64,000 nt of DNA from Pygmaiobacter massiliensis (GTDB taxonomy: Bacteria; Bacillota; Clostridia; Oscillospirales; Ruminococcaceae), in assembly GCF_900199435.1 (NCBI RefSeq), contig NZ_OAML01000002.1, positions 682,001-746,000 on the forward strand, given 5' to 3'. Within the stretch, counting starts at the first letter, position 1; the number at the start of each line of letters is the position of its first letter. The position numbers and the translations under genes were made by a program. A model generated the notes under the pieces. The model made no database searches and was not told where the DNA came from. It saw only the letters and a program-made list of their open reading frames with translations. Below are positions 37,913 to 47,023 of this stretch, in pieces.

Positions 37913-39043
37913 TTAAGAAAGCCGCCCTTTAAAATCCTGATACCCGAAGCGGCGCACAGTTTCGATGCTGCCGTCGCAGTGCCGCAATGCAATGGAGGGC
38001 AAACACATACCGTTAAAGGTATTGTTTTTCACCATCGAATAAATCGCCATGTCTTCGAAAATGAGTTTATCTCCCACCGCAAGCGGCGCATCAAACGAGT
38101 AGTCGCCAATTACGTCGCCCGCAAGGCAGGTAGCCCCCGCCAACCGGTAGGTATAGGCCTTTTCGTCCGGTTTTCCACTGTGATACAGCGGCGGGCGGTA
38201 AGGCATTTCAATTACATCCGGCATGTGGCAGGCCGCCGAAGCGTCCAGCAGCGCAATATCAATGCCATTGTGCACAATGTCCAGTACTGAAGCCACCAGA
38301 TAACCCGCATTCAGCGCCACCGCCTCGCCAGGTTCAAAATAAACTTCTACGCCGTACTTTTCTTTAAAGCGACGCACACAGGCAATCAGCGCTTCACGGT
38401 CGTAATCGGCACGTGTAATGTGGTGTCCGCCGCCGAAATTAACCCACTTCATCTGGGGTAAAAATGCTCCAAACTTCTCTTCCACCGCAGCCAGTGTTTC
38501 AATCAATGCATCACTGTTCTGCTCGCAGAGGGTGTGAAAGTGCAGCCCTTCGATACCGGCTAAAAGTTCGGGACGAAAGTTTTCGCGGGTTACACCGAGC
38601 CGCGAGCCGTCGGCGCAGGGGTCATAGATGCCATGCTCCTGTGTCGAGTGCTGCGGGTTGATACGGATGCCGCAGCTTTTGCCGGCTGCGAGGGCTTTTT
38701 CGCGATATTTCTGCCACTGTGCAAATGAGTTAAAGCTAATATGGTCGCAAAATTGAAGCACTTCGTCAAACTCATGCTCGAGATAAGCAGCAGAGAAGAT
38801 GTGCGTTTCGCCGCCCATCTCTTCAAAACCCAGCTTTGCTTCAAACAAACCGCTGGCGGTGGTACCCGCAAGATACTTGCCGATGAGCGGATAAATCGCA
38901 AACATCGAAAAGGCCTTTTGTGCAAGCAAAATTTTACAGCCTGCTTTTTCTGCTACATCGCGCAGCAGAGTCAGGTTTTCGGTAAGCCGCGCCTCATCCA
39001 CTACATAGCAGGGCGTGGCAACCTCGTATAAGCTTTTTTCCAT
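37913..39043 (-). CDS. nspC: Carboxynorspermidine/carboxyspermidine decarboxylase
   Basis: A 376-residue PLP enzyme of the alanine-racemase-fold decarboxylases. It removes the carboxyl group from carboxy(nor)spermidine, giving (nor)spermidine. Features are TPCYVVDEARLTENL at the start, the cofactor lysine in KILLAQKAFSMF, GGGHHITRADYD and a C-terminal CLAGDVIGDY segment. It overlaps the end of the upstream synthase gene by one base, so the two steps are coupled. Confidence 0.93.
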   Translation of the reverse strand: MEKSLYEVATPCYVVDEARLTENLTLLRDVAEKAGCKILLAQKAFSMFAIYPLIGKYLAGTTASGLFEAKLGFEEMGGETHIFSAAYLEHEFDEVLQFCDHISFNSFAQWQKYREKALAAGKSCGIRINPQHSTQEHGIYDPCADGSRLGVTRENFRPELLAGIEGLHFHTLCEQNSDALIETLAAVEEKFGAFLPQMKWVNFGGGHHITRADYDREALIACVRRFKEKYGVEVYFEPGEAVALNAGYLVASVLDIVHNGIDIALLDASAACHMPDVIEMPYRPPLYHSGKPDEKAYTYRLAGATCLAGDVIGDYSFDAPLAVGDKLIFEDMAIYSMVKNNTFNGMCLPSIALRHCDGSIETVRRFGYQDFKGRLS

Positions 39044-40245
39044 TAGTCCACCAGTGTCGGGTTAAAATCCTCTTCCCAAGGCAGGCCCCACTTGTTGAGT
39101 GCTGCCATAAACGGATCCGGATCGAACTCTTCGATGTTCCATACACCGGGTTTATTCCAGGTGCCGTTCATTACCAGCATTGCGCCAATCATAGCCGGCA
39201 CACCTGTGGTGTAAGAAATTGCCTGGCTGCCCACTTCTTTATAGCATTCCTGATGGTCGCAGACGTTGTAGAGGTAATAGGTTTTCTCTTTGCCGTCCTT
39301 CACTCCCTGAAAGATGCAGCCAATGTTGGTTTTGCCCACAGTGCGGGGGCCAAGGCTTGCGGGGTCCGGCAGTACTGCTTTGAGGAATTGCAGCGGAACA
39401 ATCTGTTTGCCTTCGTACTCAATCGGCTCAATCGAAGTCATGCCGACATTTTCGAGGCATTTGAGGTGGGTCAGGTAGCTCTGCCCGAAGGTCATGAAAA
39501 AGCGGATACGCTTGATGCCTTTGAGGTTTTGGCCAAGGCTTTCCAGCTCTTCGTGGTGCAGCAGGTACATATCTTTTTTGCCGACCTCTGCAAAGTCGTA
39601 CTCGCGCTTAATCTCCATGGGTTTGGTTTCTACCCACTCGCCGTTCTCCCAATAGCTGCCGTTTGCAGAAACTTCGCGAATGTTAATCTCCGGGTTAAAG
39701 TTGGTCGCAAACGGGTAGCCGTGGTCGCCGCCATTGCAATCGAGGATATCAAGGTAGTGAATCTCATCGAACTGGTGCTTTTGTGCATACGCCGCAAAAA
39801 CGCCGGTCACGCCCGGGTCAAAGCCGCTGCCAAGCAGTGCGCAGATGCCAGCTTCTTTAAATTTCTCGCGGTATGCCCACTGCCATTTGTACTCAAACTT
39901 AGCAGTGTCCAGCGGCTCGTAGTTGGCGGTATCGATATAGTGGGTTTTGGTAGCAAGGCAGGCGTCCATAATGGTGAGGTCCTGATACGGCAGCGCAAGA
40001 TTCAGCACTACATCGGGATTGAATTCGTTGATCAGCGCAATCAGCTCTTCCACATTATCCGCATCCACTTTTGCTGTGTGGATTTTTGTTTTGGTGGTGC
40101 CCTGCAGCTTTTCTTTCAGCGCGTCGCATTTGGATTTGGTGCGGCTCGCAATCATAATCTCTTCAAATACGCTGCTGTTCTGGCAGCATTTGTGGATGGC
40201 AACACTGGCGACACCGCCGCAGCCGATAATCATACATTTTCCCAT
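39043..40245 (-). CDS. Carboxynorspermidine/carboxyspermidine synthase (saccharopine dehydrogenase fold)
   Basis: A 400-residue enzyme with the nucleotide-binding start MIIGCGGVASVAIHKCC and a saccharopine-dehydrogenase-like layout. It condenses putrescine or diaminopropane with aspartate semialdehyde, using NADPH, to carboxyspermidine or carboxynorspermidine. Assignment to the polyamine branch rests on its direct overlap with nspC and its place in the spe operon. It starts 3 nt after the agmatinase stop. Confidence 0.9.
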   Translation of the reverse strand: MGKCMIIGCGGVASVAIHKCCQNSSVFEEIMIASRTKSKCDALKEKLQGTTKTKIHTAKVDADNVEELIALINEFNPDVVLNLALPYQDLTIMDACLATKTHYIDTANYEPLDTAKFEYKWQWAYREKFKEAGICALLGSGFDPGVTGVFAAYAQKHQFDEIHYLDILDCNGGDHGYPFATNFNPEINIREVSANGSYWENGEWVETKPMEIKREYDFAEVGKKDMYLLHHEELESLGQNLKGIKRIRFFMTFGQSYLTHLKCLENVGMTSIEPIEYEGKQIVPLQFLKAVLPDPASLGPRTVGKTNIGCIFQGVKDGKEKTYYLYNVCDHQECYKEVGSQAISYTTGVPAMIGAMLVMNGTWNKPGVWNIEEFDPDPFMAALNKWGLPWEEDFNPTLVD

Positions 40246-40248
40246 GGT

Positions 40249-41106
40249 TTATGCTCCTTTATTTGCAATTTGCAGTAAAATCTCTCGGGTGATTTTGCAA
40301 GCGACTGCCGTAGAGGCACCGCTTTGGTCATAATGGGGAGAAAGCTCGTTGATGTCGCAGCCGACAATGTTCAACCGGTGCAGCTGCAGCACAGCGTCGA
40401 GCAGTTCTTTAAAAGTGATGCCGCCAGCTTCCGGCGTGCCGGTACCGCAGAAAATCGAGGGGTCCAGCACATCAAGGTCCAGCGAAAAATAAACCGGTTT
40501 GCCCTTCAGCGCGGCTACCGTCTGCTCAAAACCGTTCAGGTCAAATTTGTGCAGGTCGGTATGCTGTTTTGCAAACTCAAACTCGTATTTTTCTCCGCTG
40601 CGAATACCAAACTGGTGCAGCCTGCCATCGCCTATCAGATTCCACACCTGTTTCATCACAGTGGAATGGGACAACTGCTCGCCGAGGTAATCTGTGCGCA
40701 GGTCGGTGTGTGCATCAAAGTGGATGACATGCAAATCCGGGTATTGCTCTGCCACTGCGCGCACCGTGCCGAGGGTGACCAGATGCTCACCGCCCAGCAT
40801 CACCGGGCATTTGCCGTCACGCAAAAGCTGTGCTGTGTAATCCCGGGTAAGTTCCAGCACCTTTTCGGCATTGCCAAACGGCAGCTCTAAATCACCGCCG
40901 TCAAAAATGCTGCAATCCACAAGGTCGCGGTCGCTATACGGCGAATAGGTTTCGATGCCGAAGGATTCGCCGCGCATGGCTGCCGGGCCAAAGCGTGTGC
41001 CGGGCCGAAAAGAGGTTGTGCCATCAAACGGTACGCCAAACAGTACGGTATCCGCTTCGCTGTAATCTGCCTCGCAGGCAAGGAAGGTGTGGACATTCTT
41101 ATTCAT
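40249..41106 (-). CDS. speB: Agmatinase
   Basis: A 285-residue ureohydrolase that splits agmatine into putrescine and urea. The binuclear manganese motifs are all visible: GGEHLVTLG, HFDAHTDLRTD and SLDLDVLDPS. Context with arginine decarboxylase favours agmatinase over arginase. It overlaps the spermidine synthase gene by 8 nt. Confidence 0.93.
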   Translation of the reverse strand: MNKNVHTFLACEADYSEADTVLFGVPFDGTTSFRPGTRFGPAAMRGESFGIETYSPYSDRDLVDCSIFDGGDLELPFGNAEKVLELTRDYTAQLLRDGKCPVMLGGEHLVTLGTVRAVAEQYPDLHVIHFDAHTDLRTDYLGEQLSHSTVMKQVWNLIGDGRLHQFGIRSGEKYEFEFAKQHTDLHKFDLNGFEQTVAALKGKPVYFSLDLDVLDPSIFCGTGTPEAGGITFKELLDAVLQLHRLNIVGCDINELSPHYDQSGASTAVACKITREILLQIANKGA

Positions 41107-41950
41107 CTTGCAGCATCTCCTTTACATAGGTTGGCAGACAAAAAGCGCCGGAGTGTAAATCGGTATTATAATAACGGGTACGAATTTTTGCCTCGTTCCA
41201 GTGCTGTGCCTGCAAGTCGCGCATCGGGTGCAGCGTTTTGGTGGCAAAGCCAAACAACCAGTGCCCCGAAGGATAGGTCGGAATATGTGCCTGGTAAACA
41301 AAGCTGCCCGGGAACACCTGTGAAATGCGCCTGTGTGCGGCTTTCATCGCCTTCGCATCGTCCTCGTAAAAGGGACTCTCATGCTGGTTGATTAAAATGC
41401 CCTGCTCAGTAAGCGCAGAAAAGCAGCTGCCGTAAAATTCTTTTGTAAAAAGCACCTCTCCGGGGCCAAACGGATCGGTAGAATCGACAATGATAAGGTC
41501 ATAGGCCGCATCGGTATGGCGGACAAATTTCAGCCCGTCCTGAAAATGTAGATGCACACGCGGGTCATCAAAGCCACAGGCGGTTTGCGGCAGGTACTGC
41601 TGGCAAACCCGTACCACACGCTCATCAATCTCTACAATATCGATGCACTCAATGCCGGGATATTTCGTCAGCTCGCGGGCAACGCCGCCGTCGCCTGCGC
41701 CAATCACCAGTACCCGTTTCATGTCGGGATTCACCGCCATAGCAGGGTGAGTAATCATCTCGTGGTAGATAAATTCGTCCCGCTCGGTCATCATCATAAT
41801 GCCATCCAGTGTTAAAAAGCGGCCAAACTCCGGCGATTCAAAAATGGATATCTCCTGGTAATTGCTTTTCTCATTATGCAGCTGACGCGCTACCTTAATC
41901 GAAAACCGTACGTTGGGGGTATGGTATTCACTGTACCACAAATCGTCCAT
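41099..41950 (-). CDS. speE: Spermidine synthase (aminopropyltransferase)
   Basis: A 283-residue enzyme moving an aminopropyl group from decarboxylated AdoMet to putrescine. Landmarks are LWYSEYHTPNVRFSIKV, the GDGGVARELTKYPGIE AdoMet loop, the VEIDERV acidic motif and the active-site stretch DLIIVDSTDPFGPGEVLF. It is coupled to speB downstream by overlap and lies 1 nt after speA. Confidence 0.94.
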   Translation of the reverse strand: MDDLWYSEYHTPNVRFSIKVARQLHNEKSNYQEISIFESPEFGRFLTLDGIMMMTERDEFIYHEMITHPAMAVNPDMKRVLVIGAGDGGVARELTKYPGIECIDIVEIDERVVRVCQQYLPQTACGFDDPRVHLHFQDGLKFVRHTDAAYDLIIVDSTDPFGPGEVLFTKEFYGSCFSALTEQGILINQHESPFYEDDAKAMKAAHRRISQVFPGSFVYQAHIPTYPSGHWLFGFATKTLHPMRDLQAQHWNEAKIRTRYYNTDLHSGAFCLPTYVKEMLQDE

Positions 41951-41951
41951 T

Positions 41952-43400
41952 TCATTCTCCTTTCAATACATTCAGCCGGCTTACGTCCATACTTTCCGGC
42001 CCGGTAATCACGCAGCCTTTTTCTTTGGCATAGCGGATATAGGCAATCACTTCAGGGGTGATACGCTCACCCGGGGCAAGGATGGGAATGCCCGGTGGAT
42101 AGCACATGACGAACTCGGTGCAAACCTCGCCAGCACATTCGTTAAGTGGCAGGCTGCGCTTTTCTGCGTAAAATGCAGTTTGCGGAGACATCACGACCAC
42201 TGGGCTGATATATTCGCTTTCGAGCATGTCCTTGTTGTCTTTTTTATAAATGCGGCGAATCTCTGCAAGTGCACTGATGAGCCGCTCGATATTTTTGTTT
42301 TTATCGCCAACCGAAATATAGGCAAGAATATTGCCCAGATCACCAAACTCGATTTGAATGCCATACTCGTCGCGCAGCAGGTCATATACTTCGATGCCTG
42401 CAAGACCAAGCGGCAAGGTATTGACCGAAAGCTTGGTGGTATCAAAATCGTACACGCTGTCGCCGTTGACCAGCTCTTTCGAATAAGCGTAGTAATCGCC
42501 TATATCGTTGATTTCTGCACGTGCGTATTCCGCAAAATTTTTCACCTTTTCAAAAATCTCTTCGCCCCGCAGTGCAAGGTTACGGCGAGAAATATCAAGG
42601 CTTGAAAGCAACAGATAGGAGCCGCTGGTAGTCTGCGTGAGATTGATGATTTTGCGCACATAGTCCGCATTCACCTGCGGCCCGCACAGCAACAATGAGC
42701 TTTGGGTCAACGACCCGCCGGATTTGTGCATGCTGACTGCTGCAAGGTCTGCCCCAGCTGCCATGGCAGAGATAGGCATCCCCTTGCCAAAATAAAAATG
42801 GGTGCCATGGGCCTCGTCCGCAAGTACCCGCAAGCCATTTTGGTGCGCAATTGTGGTAATCGTCGCAAGGTCTGAGCAGATGCCGTAATAGGTGGGGTTA
42901 TTGACGAGGATTGCTTTCGCTGCTGGATGCGCAGCAATGGTGCGCTGCACGTCAGCAACCGACATGCCAAGCGAGATGCCAAGCTTTTTATCGGTTTGGG
43001 GATTGATATAAACCGGCACCGCACCGCAGAGCACCAGCGCATTAATCACGCTTTGGTGTACGTTGCGGGGCAGAATAATCTCCTCGCCGCTTTTAACGCT
43101 GGCCAGAATCATTGCCTGCACAGCAGAAGTGGTACCGCCTACCATAAAAAAAGCGTGTGCGGCACCAAATGCCTCAGCTGCAAGCTCTTCTGCTTCTTTA
43201 ATTACGCTGACCGGGTGGCAGAGATTGTCCAGCGGCTTCATCGAGTTAACGTCTACCGAAAGGCACTGCTCGCCCAAAAATGCAGTCAGCTCCGGGTTTC
43301 CTTTGCCGTGTTTATGGCCCGGCACATCAAACGGAACTAGCCGGTCGTGCCGCATGCGCTCCAGCGCTTCCAACAGCGGCGCTCTGGTCTGGTCTTTCAA
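41952..43400 (-). CDS. speA: Arginine decarboxylase (Orn/Lys/Arg family, biosynthetic)
   Basis: A 482-residue PLP enzyme similar in length and pattern to B. subtilis SpeA. It carries [16 protein letters not shown] at the N-terminus, [25 protein letters not shown] and the cofactor lysine in [13 protein letters not shown]. Arginine is chosen as the substrate because agmatinase, which needs agmatine, lies in the same operon. Its start overlaps the speD stop by 4 nt. Confidence 0.9.
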
Positions 43401-44176
43401 CGCGCTACCTCCCCATAAATATTAGAACCGCTGAAAATCTCAATCATTTCGCGGCGCAAAGAGTTGGTAATATCCAGCCGGGTTTTGGGCGGAATTTCAT
43501 AGACATCCGAGTTGAACAGGTAATTTTGCAGTACGATGTCTTTAATGAGCATTTTGGTGTGAAAAATATTCGACTGGTAAACGTTGACGTCGATGGCGTC
43601 GTACTTTTGCAAGGTGGTGTTGTCGATATAATCCTGAATGGAAGTGATGTTATGGTCGATGAACAGCTTTTGACCTTGCATATCCCGCGTAAAGCCGCGC
43701 ACCCGGTAATCCATCGTGATAATATCAGAATCAAAACTGCCGATGAGGAAATCCAGCGTAGAAAGCGGGGTAATCTCACCGCAGGTGGCAACGTCGATAT
43801 CAACGCGGAAGGTTGCAATAGAGGTTTCCGGATGATACTCCGGATAGGTATGCACGGTAACATGGCTCTTGTCCAGGTGCGCAACAACAGTTTCGCCACT
43901 GCGGGTTTTCACCATGCTTTCTTCGGCAATCAAAAAAGTGACGCTCGCGCCCTGCGGCTCATAGTCCTGTTTTGAAATATTCAGCACCGTTGCGCCAATC
44001 ATTTCGGTAAGGCGGGTCAAAATTGCAGTTAAACGCTCAGAGTTGTACTGCTCGTTGATATATTTAATATAATCCTGCTGTTCGCGCGCTGTTTTGGCAT
44101 AACAGATATCGTAGATGTTAAAACTCAACGATTTTGTGAGGTTATTAAAGCCATACAGTTTCATTTTTTCTACCAA
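43397..44176 (-). CDS. speD: S-adenosylmethionine decarboxylase proenzyme (E. coli-type)
   Basis: A 259-residue pyruvoyl enzyme that supplies decarboxylated AdoMet for aminopropyl transfer. The self-cleavage site is [13 protein letters not shown], where Ser104 becomes the pyruvoyl group. Length and the start [20 protein letters not shown] match E. coli SpeD, not the short Bacillus/archaeal form. I start at TTG 44176, because GGAGG lies 8 nt upstream and the ATG at 44164 lies too far from it. It is the first gene of the polyamine operon, directly behind a leader terminator. Confidence 0.92.
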
Positions 44177-44576
44177 TTTCAAAACCTCCAAACAAAAAAA
44201 AGATGTGTCACAGCGTACTGTGGCACATCTTATAAAATCGTTCAATGATTGTATTCTGGTTTGGGTAAGCGCGCAAAGCCCCTGTGAAATAATATCACGT
44301 AAGACGATGCAGAATTCCAGAAATTTTCAGAGTCTATATAGCAAGAACTACTTTTACTACTCTTATTGACCGTTTCACAAGTGTGTACCCGAAGTACACT
44401 TGGTTATGAAGTAACCAACTGGCAATTTAGTTGCCAACTTATAAAAGTTGCGCTTTTAACGCAATCAATAATGCGGAGCAAGCTCCACGATCGGCAGTTG
44501 ACCCGGCTGTCCGTATGGCCTCGAGCTTCTAAAAAAGAAACTGGTCAAAATGTCCTCGCTATATGCGATTGAAAAC
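44177..44576 (-). promoter_or_regulatory. Long structured leader of the polyamine operon
   Basis: About 400 nt lie between the promoter and speD. Reading leftward, the first 120 nt can close with CAATC/GATTG and contain TTGACC/GGTCAA and GGAGC/GCTCC helices. Three small hairpins follow in a row: TTGCCA/TGGCAA (44420-44436), TTGGTTA/TAACCAA (44400-44418) and GTGTAC/GTACAC (44383-44399). A GTG-initiated frame of 14 codons, MKRSIRVVKVVLAI (44334-44378), has no clear ribosome site. The leader ends in an intrinsic terminator. I match it to no known riboswitch class. Confidence 0.6.
44191..44231 (-). terminator. Attenuator-type terminator directly upstream of speD
   Basis: A 14-bp stem with one G-T mispair, AAGATGTGCCACAG (44231-44218) with CTGTGACACATCTT (44213-44200), is followed leftward by seven more T. 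It stops 2 nt before the GGAGG of speD. Upstream, TCACAG in the leader could pair with CTGTGA of the 3' arm as part of an alternative fold. Confidence 0.85.
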
Positions 44577-44582
44577 AAGCTA

Positions 44583-44611
44583 ATTCTACGGGATACTAAA
44601 TGCTTTGTCAA
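44583..44611 (-). promoter_or_regulatory. Promoter of the polyamine operon
   Basis: Reading leftward, TTGACA (44611-44606), a 17-nt spacer and TAGAAT (44588-44583). The start site would be near 44576, leaving the 400-nt leader. Confidence 0.75.
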
Positions 44612-45625: not shown

Positions 45626-46963
45626 TTAAAGCACCTCGTTAATCGAAGCAACACAGCGGCGCACCGCTTCATCAATTTCTTCTTTGCTGATGACAAGCGG
45701 CGGGTTAAAGTACAGCACGTTACCCAGCGGGCGCAAAATGAGACCGTTCGCCAGTGCTTTTTTATAAATTTGATAACCCATGCGCAAGGAGGAGTCAAAT
45801 TCGGTTTTGGTTTTTTTATCGCTCACCAGCTCAATTGCGTTGATGAGACCAATGTGTCGAATTTCGCCAACATTTGGGTGGTCTAGCAATGCATTGCAAA
45901 GCTGCTCATGCAGGTATTCTGCCTGCACCGCTGCCTTTTCAAGAATCTGCTCTTCACGCAGAATTTTCTGCACTGCCAGTGCTGCGCGGCAGCCCAGCGG
46001 GTTACCGCTGTAGGTGTGGCTGTGCATAAAGGCTTTGCCTTCATTATAGTCTGCATAAAAGGCATTGTAAACCTCGTTGGTGGTAACGGTGATGGCCATT
46101 GGCATATAACCACCGGTAAGGCCTTTAGAGATACAGATAATATCCGGCGAAATGCCCGCATGGTCGCAGGCAAACATTTTACCGGTACGTCCAAAACCGG
46201 TTGCAATTTCGTCCGCAATCAGCAGCACATGATAACTGTCGCACAAGGCGCGCAGCTTTTTCAGGTAAACCGGTGGGTAAATACGCATACCGGCGCTGCC
46301 CTGCAACAGCGGCTCAATAATAATGCCACAGGTTTCGTGTGCGTGCTGTTCAAACATTTTTTCTGCGTGTTCAAAGCACTCGGCATCGCAATTATCACGG
46401 CACTTGCCGTAGGGGCAGCGGTAGCAATCGGGTGCTTCTACATGCAGTACATCCATTAGCATCGGTTTATAGATTTTTGCATACAGATCCATGCTGCCCA
46501 CTGAAAGTGCGCCGATTGTTTCGCCGTGGTAGCCTTCGGAAAGGCACATAAATCGCTTTTTCTCTTGGTGTCCGGTTTGGTACTGGTACTGAAACGCCAT
46601 TTTCAGAGCACACTCTACCGCCGCCGAGCCGTTGTCTGAAAAATTAAACTTTTCAAGGCCTGCGGGCAAAACCTTGCTCAGCTCTTCGCAAAGACGAATG
46701 GCAGGCTCGTGGGTGAGATTTGCAAAAATCACATGCTCCAGCTTGTCCAGTTGGTCTTTGATTTCGGCATTAATTTTCGGGTTGCAGTGCCCCAGCAGGT
46801 TGCACCACCACGAGCTCACCACGTCAATATAGTCTTTACCGTTTTCGTCATAAAGCATCACGCCTTTTGCATGGTCGATGACAATAGGAGCAAGCTCCTC
46901 GTAATCCTTCATCTGCGAACAGGGATGCCAAATGTACTTTAGGTCTTTTTCAACTAAATTCAT
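45626..46963 (-). CDS. bioA: Adenosylmethionine-8-amino-7-oxononanoate aminotransferase
   Basis: A 445-residue class III aminotransferase making 7,8-diaminopelargonic acid in biotin synthesis. It shows YIWHPCSQMKDYE at the start, WWCNLLGHCNP, LIADEIATGFGRTGKMF and the cofactor lysine in ISKGLTGGYMPM (about Lys280). A cysteine-rich insert, CYRCPYGKCRDNC (about 180-192), may bind a metal. bioB, bioD and bioF are not in the window, so this is a partial pathway here. It follows bioY under a BirA-type operator. Confidence 0.9.
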   Translation of the reverse strand: MNLVEKDLKYIWHPCSQMKDYEELAPIVIDHAKGVMLYDENGKDYIDVVSSWWCNLLGHCNPKINAEIKDQLDKLEHVIFANLTHEPAIRLCEELSKVLPAGLEKFNFSDNGSAAVECALKMAFQYQYQTGHQEKKRFMCLSEGYHGETIGALSVGSMDLYAKIYKPMLMDVLHVEAPDCYRCPYGKCRDNCDAECFEHAEKMFEQHAHETCGIIIEPLLQGSAGMRIYPPVYLKKLRALCDSYHVLLIADEIATGFGRTGKMFACDHAGISPDIICISKGLTGGYMPMAITVTTNEVYNAFYADYNEGKAFMHSHTYSGNPLGCRAALAVQKILREEQILEKAAVQAEYLHEQLCNALLDHPNVGEIRHIGLINAIELVSDKKTKTEFDSSLRMGYQIYKKALANGLILRPLGNVLYFNPPLVISKEEIDEAVRRCVASINEVL

Positions 46964-47023
46964 GGTTTCCTCTCTTTCTAGCGGTGCGTTGCATCGCTGC
47001 ATGGTCTAACGTATCAAAATAAA

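What the first reader, a model, noticed from the sequence alone, without database searches (positions are those of the whole stretch)
44177..44611. Uncharacterised 400-nt structured leader with attenuator before a polyamine operon
A near-consensus promoter (44583-44611) is separated from speD by about 400 nt. The leader has a possible closed domain of about 120 nt, three consecutive small hairpins (44383-44436) and a strong intrinsic terminator whose T run ends just before the speD ribosome site. Such a layout is built for transcription attenuation. It matches no riboswitch consensus I know. The sensed ligand could be a polyamine, AdoMet or arginine, or a stalled ribosome on the basic 14-codon frame at 44334-44378.
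Basis: partly seen in the sequence, partly recalled or inferred. Interest (0 to 1): 0.8.

Follow-up and report, generated by a model that had tools for sequence, protein, structure and literature searches.

The report
Candidate polyamine RNA switch
The start of this polyamine-gene message is a large folded RNA, shared by many distantly related Gram-positive bacteria in front of polyamine-making and polyamine-import genes, that appears to choose between stopping and continuing transcription; the databases know only a 54-base piece of it, filed as a Streptococcus small RNA, so it is probably an unrecognised type of polyamine-sensing switch.

Summary
A near-consensus promoter (44583-44611, minus strand) opens a ~400-nt leader ending in an intrinsic terminator just before the speD ribosome site. 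The operon is speD-speA-speE-speB-CANSDH-nspC. The leader is not wholly unknown: 44491-44547 matches Rfam RF02440 (SpF59_sRNA, a 54-nt 'Streptococcus sRNA'; 67.5 bits). That is only one piece of a conserved ~230-nt RNA. A covariance model built without the window hits it at 149.6 bits. Among 118 pattern matches collected without using gene context, 109 of the 111 with enough downstream sequence precede speD (34), speA (33), potA (26) or CANSDH (16); the other two are chance matches. Helices covary (26 of 38 pairs with changes on both sides against 9.2 shuffled). A terminator follows in 104 of 107 loci, and its 5' arm pairs with the same aptamer strand (P6/P8 3') locus by locus (z about 11), giving mutually exclusive antiterminator and terminator. 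Best reading: a polyamine-responsive (probably spermidine) 'off' riboswitch class, unrelated by Rfam search to the known SAM-I-derived spermidine riboswitch. Attenuation is well supported by sequence; ligand and direct binding are inferred. The proposed upstream reading frame is not conserved. Rare relatives lack the SpF59 core but keep the 3' pseudoknot module.

The parts
44583..44611 (-). sigma-70-type promoter TTGACA-17 nt-TAGAAT
   Evidence: 11/12 matches; in related loci the best promoter-like site most often has its -10 about 46-65 nt before the P2 strand (window: 42 nt)
44337..44563 (-). whole conserved structured leader RNA, P1 to P1 (about 227 nt)
   Evidence: fold z -4.2; R1 covers 44347-44547 at 149.6 bits; P1 own-strand duplex score 31.6 against 26.5 for swapped loci
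44491..44547 (-). Rfam RF02440 SpF59_sRNA match (P2, P2a, P2b hairpin with loop CAUACGGACA)
   Evidence: 67.5 bits, gathering score 37.2; P2 first pair UA/GC/CG covaries
44548..44563 (-). P1 5' strand TATAGCGAGGACATTT
   Evidence: coordinates; pairing
44337..44355 (-). P1 3' strand AAAAGTAGTTCTTGCTATA
   Evidence: coordinates; pairing
44471..44488 (-). P3 hairpin
   Evidence: P3 segment more stable than its shuffles in 98% of loci
44462..44470 (-). P4 5' strand UAUUGAUUG
   Evidence: pairs 44372-44362
44362..44372 (-). P4 3' strand CGGUCAAUAAG
44448..44464 (-). P5 hairpin
44435..44446 (-). P6 5' strand UUUUAUAAGUUG
44373..44383 (-). P6 3' strand CACUUGUGAAA (shared by P6 and the antiterminator)
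44420..44437 (-). extra hairpin within P6, seen here and in L021
44402..44416 (-). P7 hairpin
44383..44399 (-). P8 hairpin
   Evidence: P7/P8 region more stable than shuffles
44359..44363 (-). AGAGU, 5' side of a proposed pseudoknot helix that encloses the P1 3' strand
   Evidence: AGAGU/ACUCU nearly invariant, UGAGC/GCUCA in two related loci
44329..44333 (-). ACUCU, 3' side of the proposed pseudoknot helix
44373..44389 (-). antiterminator 5' strand GGUACACACUUGUGAAA
   Evidence: complementary to 44237-44222; duplex -13.1 kcal/mol against -7.3 for P6
44222..44237 (-). antiterminator 3' strand UUUUAUAAGAUGUGCC; its UUUUAUAAG repeats the P6 5' strand and it overlaps the terminator 5' arm
44194..44230 (-). 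intrinsic terminator: stem 44230-44201, T-run 44201-44194
   Evidence: -15.0 kcal/mol
43397..44176 (-). speD, S-adenosylmethionine decarboxylase (ribosome site 44189-44185)
   Evidence: TIGR03331 405.7 bits
41952..43400 (-). speA-type basic amino acid decarboxylase (Orn/Lys/Arg fold)
41099..41950 (-). speE, polyamine aminopropyltransferase
40249..41106 (-). speB, agmatinase
39043..40245 (-). carboxynorspermidine synthase (CANSDH)-like
   Evidence: NF043000 415 bits, below its curated cut-off of 800
37913..39043 (-). nspC, carboxynorspermidine decarboxylase
   Evidence: TIGR01047 500 bits

Best explanation
The leader is a cis-acting transcription attenuator, most likely a riboswitch that senses a polyamine (spermidine or a close relative) and turns the operon off when polyamine is plentiful. 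RNA polymerase first makes a ~230-nt folded domain (P1-P8 plus a 3' pseudoknot-like module). When the folded form is stable (inferred: ligand bound), the P6/P8 3' strand is held inside the domain, the terminator downstream forms and transcription stops before speD. When it is not (inferred: ligand absent), the same strand (44389-44373) pairs with the 5' arm of the terminator (44237-44222), the terminator cannot form and the operon is read. Shown from sequence: the conserved covarying fold, the terminator, the mutually exclusive pairing and the polyamine gene context. Inferred: direct ligand binding, the ligand, and the 'off' polarity.
For: Independent model R1, built without the window, hits it at 149.6 bits, E 1e-33, single copy in the genome. 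Covariation: 36 loci, 97.3% of cells paired, 12 pairs changed on both sides against 4.6 shuffled, slid controls 24-47%; 100 loci, 26 pairs against 9.2 (alignment fitted to the model). P1 own against swapped loci 31.6 against 26.5, sd of swapped means 0.27. Terminator in 104 of 107 loci. Terminator 5' arm against P6/P8 3' strand: own 25.1, swapped 21.5 (sd 0.3, z about 11), shuffled 15.2; 11 other leader segments at most 17.7, z at most 3. The antiterminator is more stable than P6 in 90 of 104 loci. Gene context: 109 of 111 informative pattern loci precede speD, speA, CANSDH or potA; all 22 model hits in 398 phylum genomes lie before speD, speA or CANSDH; potABCD confirmed by curated models.
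Against: No ligand binding or expression data. Several helix pairs (P2, P4, P6) are nearly invariant, so their covariation is limited. The RNA is absent or unseen upstream of speD in 7 of 18 speD-bearing relatives. The swap tests treat related loci as independent. Nothing in the sequence excludes a protein as the sensor. A few relatives (L070, L078, L105) show no convincing terminator.
Confidence: 0.7

Rival explanations
1. The leader attenuates transcription, but the sensor is an RNA-binding protein (or another trans factor) that stabilises the folded domain, rather than a directly bound small molecule.
For: The attenuation logic does not depend on what stabilises the fold; the RNA is large for a small ligand.
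Against: Long nearly invariant single-stranded and junction sequences kept from Paenibacillus to Faecalibacterium are typical of aptamers; no regulator gene was found as a constant neighbour, though this was not searched systematically.
Confidence: 0.14
2. It is a riboswitch, but for a polyamine-pathway intermediate or precursor (AdoMet, decarboxylated AdoMet, MTA, agmatine, arginine, lysine) and not for a polyamine.
For: speD or speA is often the first gene.
Against: The same RNA precedes CANSDH-nspC operons without a speD or speE match among the genes seen and potABCD uptake operons, where a polyamine is the shared product or substrate. No SAM riboswitch match in the leader.
Confidence: 0.1
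3. It is a trans-acting small RNA, as its Rfam entry says, made from its own promoter and terminator.
For: A 54-nt part is RF02440 SpF59_sRNA; the pneumococcal transcript (F59/srn235) is listed among sRNA candidates (PMC3395615; PMC12323649). Terminated leaders could act in trans as by-products.
Against: Nearly constant position on the same strand 215-650 nt before polyamine genes, and a terminator whose arm co-evolves with the leader, point to cis control.
Confidence: 0.04
4. Ribosome stalling on the short basic frame at 44334-44378 controls attenuation.
Against: Frame length varies from 4 to more than 29 codons, with 14 codons in only 18 loci; it is made of conserved RNA structure (P6 3', P4 3', P1 3'), which explains the conserved GTG.
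Confidence: 0.02

Closest known systems
Rfam RF02440 SpF59_sRNA ('ldcC RNA'; pneumococcal F59 / srn235 / Spd_sr49)
   Same: 44491-44547 matches the full 54-nt model at 67.5 bits. In pneumococcus it lies between SP0915 and SP0916 (PMC3395615).
   Different: Rfam covers only the P2 domain and calls it a Streptococcus sRNA. The RNA here is about 230 nt, lies in cis before polyamine operons across many Bacillota, and carries a terminator/antiterminator. Core-less relatives (L203, L181, L157) are not found by RF02440.
Spermidine riboswitch, a variant of SAM-I (Salvail et al., PMC10853860)
   Same: Precedes polyamine genes; works by transcription termination; reported as a spermidine 'off' switch.
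   Different: No SAM-I match in this leader even at E up to 1; the only RF00162 match in this genome is elsewhere (C1:95091-95190). Size, helices and invariant nucleotides differ. Described there as rare; this RNA is widespread.
potE motif and odc1 motif (weak riboswitch / uORF candidates, PMC8632094)
   Same: Leader RNAs associated with polyamine genes.
   Different: Other phylogenetic groups (Veillonella; alpha-proteobacteria) and other architectures. No conserved uORF here.

Membership tests
RF02440 SpF59_sRNA | Match to the covariance model above the gathering score | tested here: met
   67.5 bits against 37.2, full length 1-54
RF02440 SpF59_sRNA | Independent trans-acting sRNA | not testable with these tools
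   Gene context and co-evolving terminator argue for cis action
SAM-I-derived spermidine riboswitch | SAM-I-like aptamer fold and sequence (RF00162 relative) | tested here: not met
   No match in the leader at gathering or at E up to 1
SAM-I-derived spermidine riboswitch | Terminator-based expression platform before polyamine genes | tested here: met
Riboswitch (general) | Conserved, covarying structured domain in distant lineages | tested here: met
Riboswitch (general) | Expression platform mutually exclusive with the conserved fold | tested here: met
Riboswitch (general) | Consistent association with one metabolic theme | tested here: met
   109 of 111 informative loci before polyamine synthesis or uptake genes
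Riboswitch (general) | Direct and selective ligand binding that alters expression | not testable with these tools
   Needs in-line probing and transcription assays
uORF / leader-peptide attenuator | Conserved upstream reading frame | tested here: not met
   Frame length not conserved
T-box leader | Match to the T-box family model | tested here: not met
   No T-box match among 4227 Rfam families

The most novel reading that the evidence does not exclude
A widespread riboswitch class for spermidine or a related polyamine, unrelated to SAM-I, that controls both polyamine synthesis and uptake in Bacillota. It is modular: the SpF59 domain is missing in some species (L203/L158, L204, L215, L181) and the 3' pseudoknot module is altered or missing in others (such as L025, L028), yet both kinds feed the same antiterminator strand, so it may be a natural two-module sensor.
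Probability: 0.55. Interest if true: 0.9.

Novelty: new variant of a known kind. Interest (0 to 1): 0.82.

Why it matters
Polyamine riboswitches were long claimed and doubted; in the papers available here the only accepted class is a rare SAM-I offshoot (PMC10853860). A separate, larger and widely distributed RNA before speD, speA, CANSDH and potABCD, with a clear terminator/antiterminator, would be a second solution and a main route of polyamine control in gut Clostridia, Paenibacillus, Bacillus relatives, lactococci and streptococci. It would also correct an Rfam entry that treats a piece of it as an sRNA. It can be tested at once in vitro and in B. subtilis.

Tried and rejected
Global MAFFT alignment of about 100 full leaders gave 596 columns and a poor RNAalifold consensus; replaced by anchored parsing and a 36-sequence subset of similar hairpin lengths. 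SAM riboswitch, T-box and other Rfam families: no match in the leader. The uORF hypothesis was tested and rejected. P1 as the antiterminator partner was tested and rejected: terminator arm against the P1 3' strand own 16.2, swapped 16.3. RNAalifold's CGG/CCG pairing in the core was replaced by GGC/GCC because of AGCC/GCU double changes in L018, L030 and L059. Loci L066 and L087 (actinobacteria) were rejected as chance pattern matches: no model hit. L171 and L172 (33 bits, about 62% GC) were not counted: no polyamine gene beside them. A search of the Spirochaete phylum around L078 could not be run. Literature searches on polyamine riboswitches, speD/speA/potA/ldcC leaders, srn235 and RF02440 found no description of this RNA as a polyamine leader; bioRxiv and most subscription journals are not in the library.

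Full report
WHAT IS THERE. On the minus strand a near-consensus promoter (44611-44583, 11 of 12) is followed by a ~400-nt leader, an intrinsic terminator (44230-44194) and, four bases on, the ribosome site of speD (44189-44185). Downstream genes are speD, a speA-type decarboxylase, speE, speB, a carboxynorspermidine synthase homologue (below that family's curated cut-off) and nspC. The leader folds far better than shuffles (z -4.2 and -5.4).

A KNOWN FRAGMENT OF SOMETHING LARGER. Rfam has one family in the whole window: RF02440 SpF59_sRNA at 44547-44491, 67.5 bits. It is a 54-nt model named for a pneumococcal sRNA. In the literature available it appears only in lists of sRNA candidates, located between SP0915 and SP0916 (PMC3395615; PMC12323649, where the candidate is 327 nt long). 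Genomes carrying it share sequence far beyond these 54 nt. Named carriers include Bacillus, Neobacillus, Alkalihalobacillus, Paenibacillus, Acidaminococcus, Phascolarctobacterium, Acetobacterium, Blautia, Faecalibacterium, Gemmiger and Flavonifractor; Lactococcus lactis carries the RF02440 part.

GENE CONTEXT. Seven end too soon to tell. Of the other 111, the first recognised gene is speD in 34, speA in 33, potA in 26 and CANSDH in 16, with starts 215-650 nt downstream of the core. The last two are chance matches without model support. In one sample (L024) the potA operon encodes all of PotABCD, and potA genes of four other loci also score best against spermidine/putrescine transporter models. 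In a sample of 398 genomes of the phylum, the full model finds 22, all before speD, speA or CANSDH. The reverse is weaker: of 18 relatives with speD, nine have the RNA directly before it, one more (G418, L181) has a core-less form, one (G441) has it before speA instead, and in the other seven no match was seen, two of them with incomplete upstream sequence. The RNA is therefore lost or replaced in some lineages.

STRUCTURE. From 36 diverse loci, window excluded, RNAalifold recovers P2, P2a, P4, P5, P6 and P7. With the core hairpin written as GGC/GCC, 97.3% of cells pair, 12 pairs show changes on both sides against 4.6 shuffled, and sliding the strands drops pairing to 24-47%. On 100 loci, in an alignment fitted to the model and so leaning towards it, 26 of 38 pairs show changes on both sides against 9.2. 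P1, not in the model, pairs better within loci (31.6) than between loci (26.5, sd of means 0.27). A further pairing, AGAGU (44363-44359) with ACUCU (44333-44329), would make a pseudoknot with P1. It is nearly invariant and has one apparent compensated form, UGAGC/GCUCA, in two related loci, so it is likely but weakly tested. The model built without the window hits it at 149.6 bits as the only copy in the genome.

ATTENUATION. A terminator was found after the RNA in 104 of 107 loci. Its 5' arm complements the P8/P6 3' strand (consensus ...AACUUGUGAAA) in each locus: over 91 loci with clean terminators the mean score is 25.1, against 21.5 when arms are swapped between loci (sd 0.3) and 15.2 for shuffled letters. 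Eleven other parts of the leader score at most 17.7 and gain at most 3 standard deviations over swaps. Both the constant part and the variable part therefore fit each other locus by locus. In the window, 44389-44373 pairs with 44237-44222; the latter repeats the P6 5' strand (UUUUAUAAG). The antiterminator duplex (-13.1 kcal/mol) exceeds P6 (-7.3), and in 90 of 104 loci likewise. The folded domain and the antiterminator are mutually exclusive, and the antiterminator excludes the terminator.

HOW IT WORKS. Inference: ligand binding stabilises the folded domain, P6 keeps its 3' strand, the terminator forms and the operon is off; without ligand the antiterminator wins. 'Off' follows from the genes: synthesis and uptake should both fall when polyamine is abundant. 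A polyamine is preferred over AdoMet, MTA or arginine because the same RNA precedes CANSDH-nspC operons (a route that from general knowledge uses aspartate semialdehyde, not AdoMet) and the potABCD importer. Spermidine is the simplest common compound. I put the cis-attenuator at about 0.92, a directly bound small ligand at about 0.78, and a polyamine as that ligand at about 0.7 overall.

ALTERNATIVES. The 14-codon frame proposed as a stalling peptide lies inside P6 3', P4 3' and P1 3', and its length is not kept. The known spermidine riboswitch is a SAM-I variant (PMC10853860); this leader has no SAM match even at E up to 1, and the one SAM-I riboswitch in this genome is elsewhere. Two Breaker-group surveys do not describe a matching motif in the passages searched. 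A protein sensor cannot be excluded.

UNEXPECTED MODULARITY. Three genomes of one genus (L203/L158, L204, L215) carry, before speD where checked, a short form that keeps P1, the AAUAAGAGUAGUAAAAGUA...UUGCUAUAUAGACUCU module, the ACUUGUGAA strand and a terminator with CGCAAGUG, but has no SpF59 domain. L181 also lacks it. Conversely a minority of loci keep the SpF59 domain and lack or alter the 3' module. This suggests that the 3' pseudoknot module, not the Rfam fragment, may be the essential sensor, and it gives natural minimal constructs to test.

LIMITS. No wet-lab data; swap tests do not correct for shared ancestry, though the other leader segments serve as a control; literature held here excludes bioRxiv and most subscription journals, so a recent description could have been missed.

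Noticed in passing
L203:~1450-1640, L204, L215 (G220, G195, G455): Minimal relatives of the leader without the SpF59 core, with P1, the AGAGUAGUAAAAGUA...ACUCU module and a terminator; L203 and L204 lie before speD.
   Followed up: partly
L181:1233-1391 (G418): Divergent speD leader (16.5 bits) that keeps P4 and the 3' module but lacks the GGCCAUACGG core.
   Followed up: partly
L094:5855-6188 and L129:4151-4471: Two model hits in a row on the same strand: the RNA looks split by an insertion inside P6, before potA.
   Followed up: no
L096, about 190-590 nt downstream of the core: First open frame between the RNA and potA looks by eye like a P-II (GlnB) protein, which would hint at a nitrogen link.
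   Followed up: no
G000:C1:853691-854626 and three other strong potA-like genes: The window's genome has potA-like genes but only one copy of this RNA, so uptake is not under its control here.
   Followed up: partly
L078:3374-3554: A contig labelled Spirochaetes carries the RNA before a speD-speA-speE-speB-CANSDH operon; transfer or mis-binning.
   Followed up: no
window:37913-44176: The operon holds both speD/speE and CANSDH/nspC, i.e. genes of two spermidine routes.
   Followed up: no
window:44819-45439: XRE-type regulator (RstR-like) with membrane segments by eye, between bioA (45626-47002) and the polyamine operon.
   Followed up: no
window:36513-37823: Aspartate kinase gene directly downstream of nspC on the same strand; it would feed the aspartate semialdehyde used by CANSDH.
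   Followed up: no
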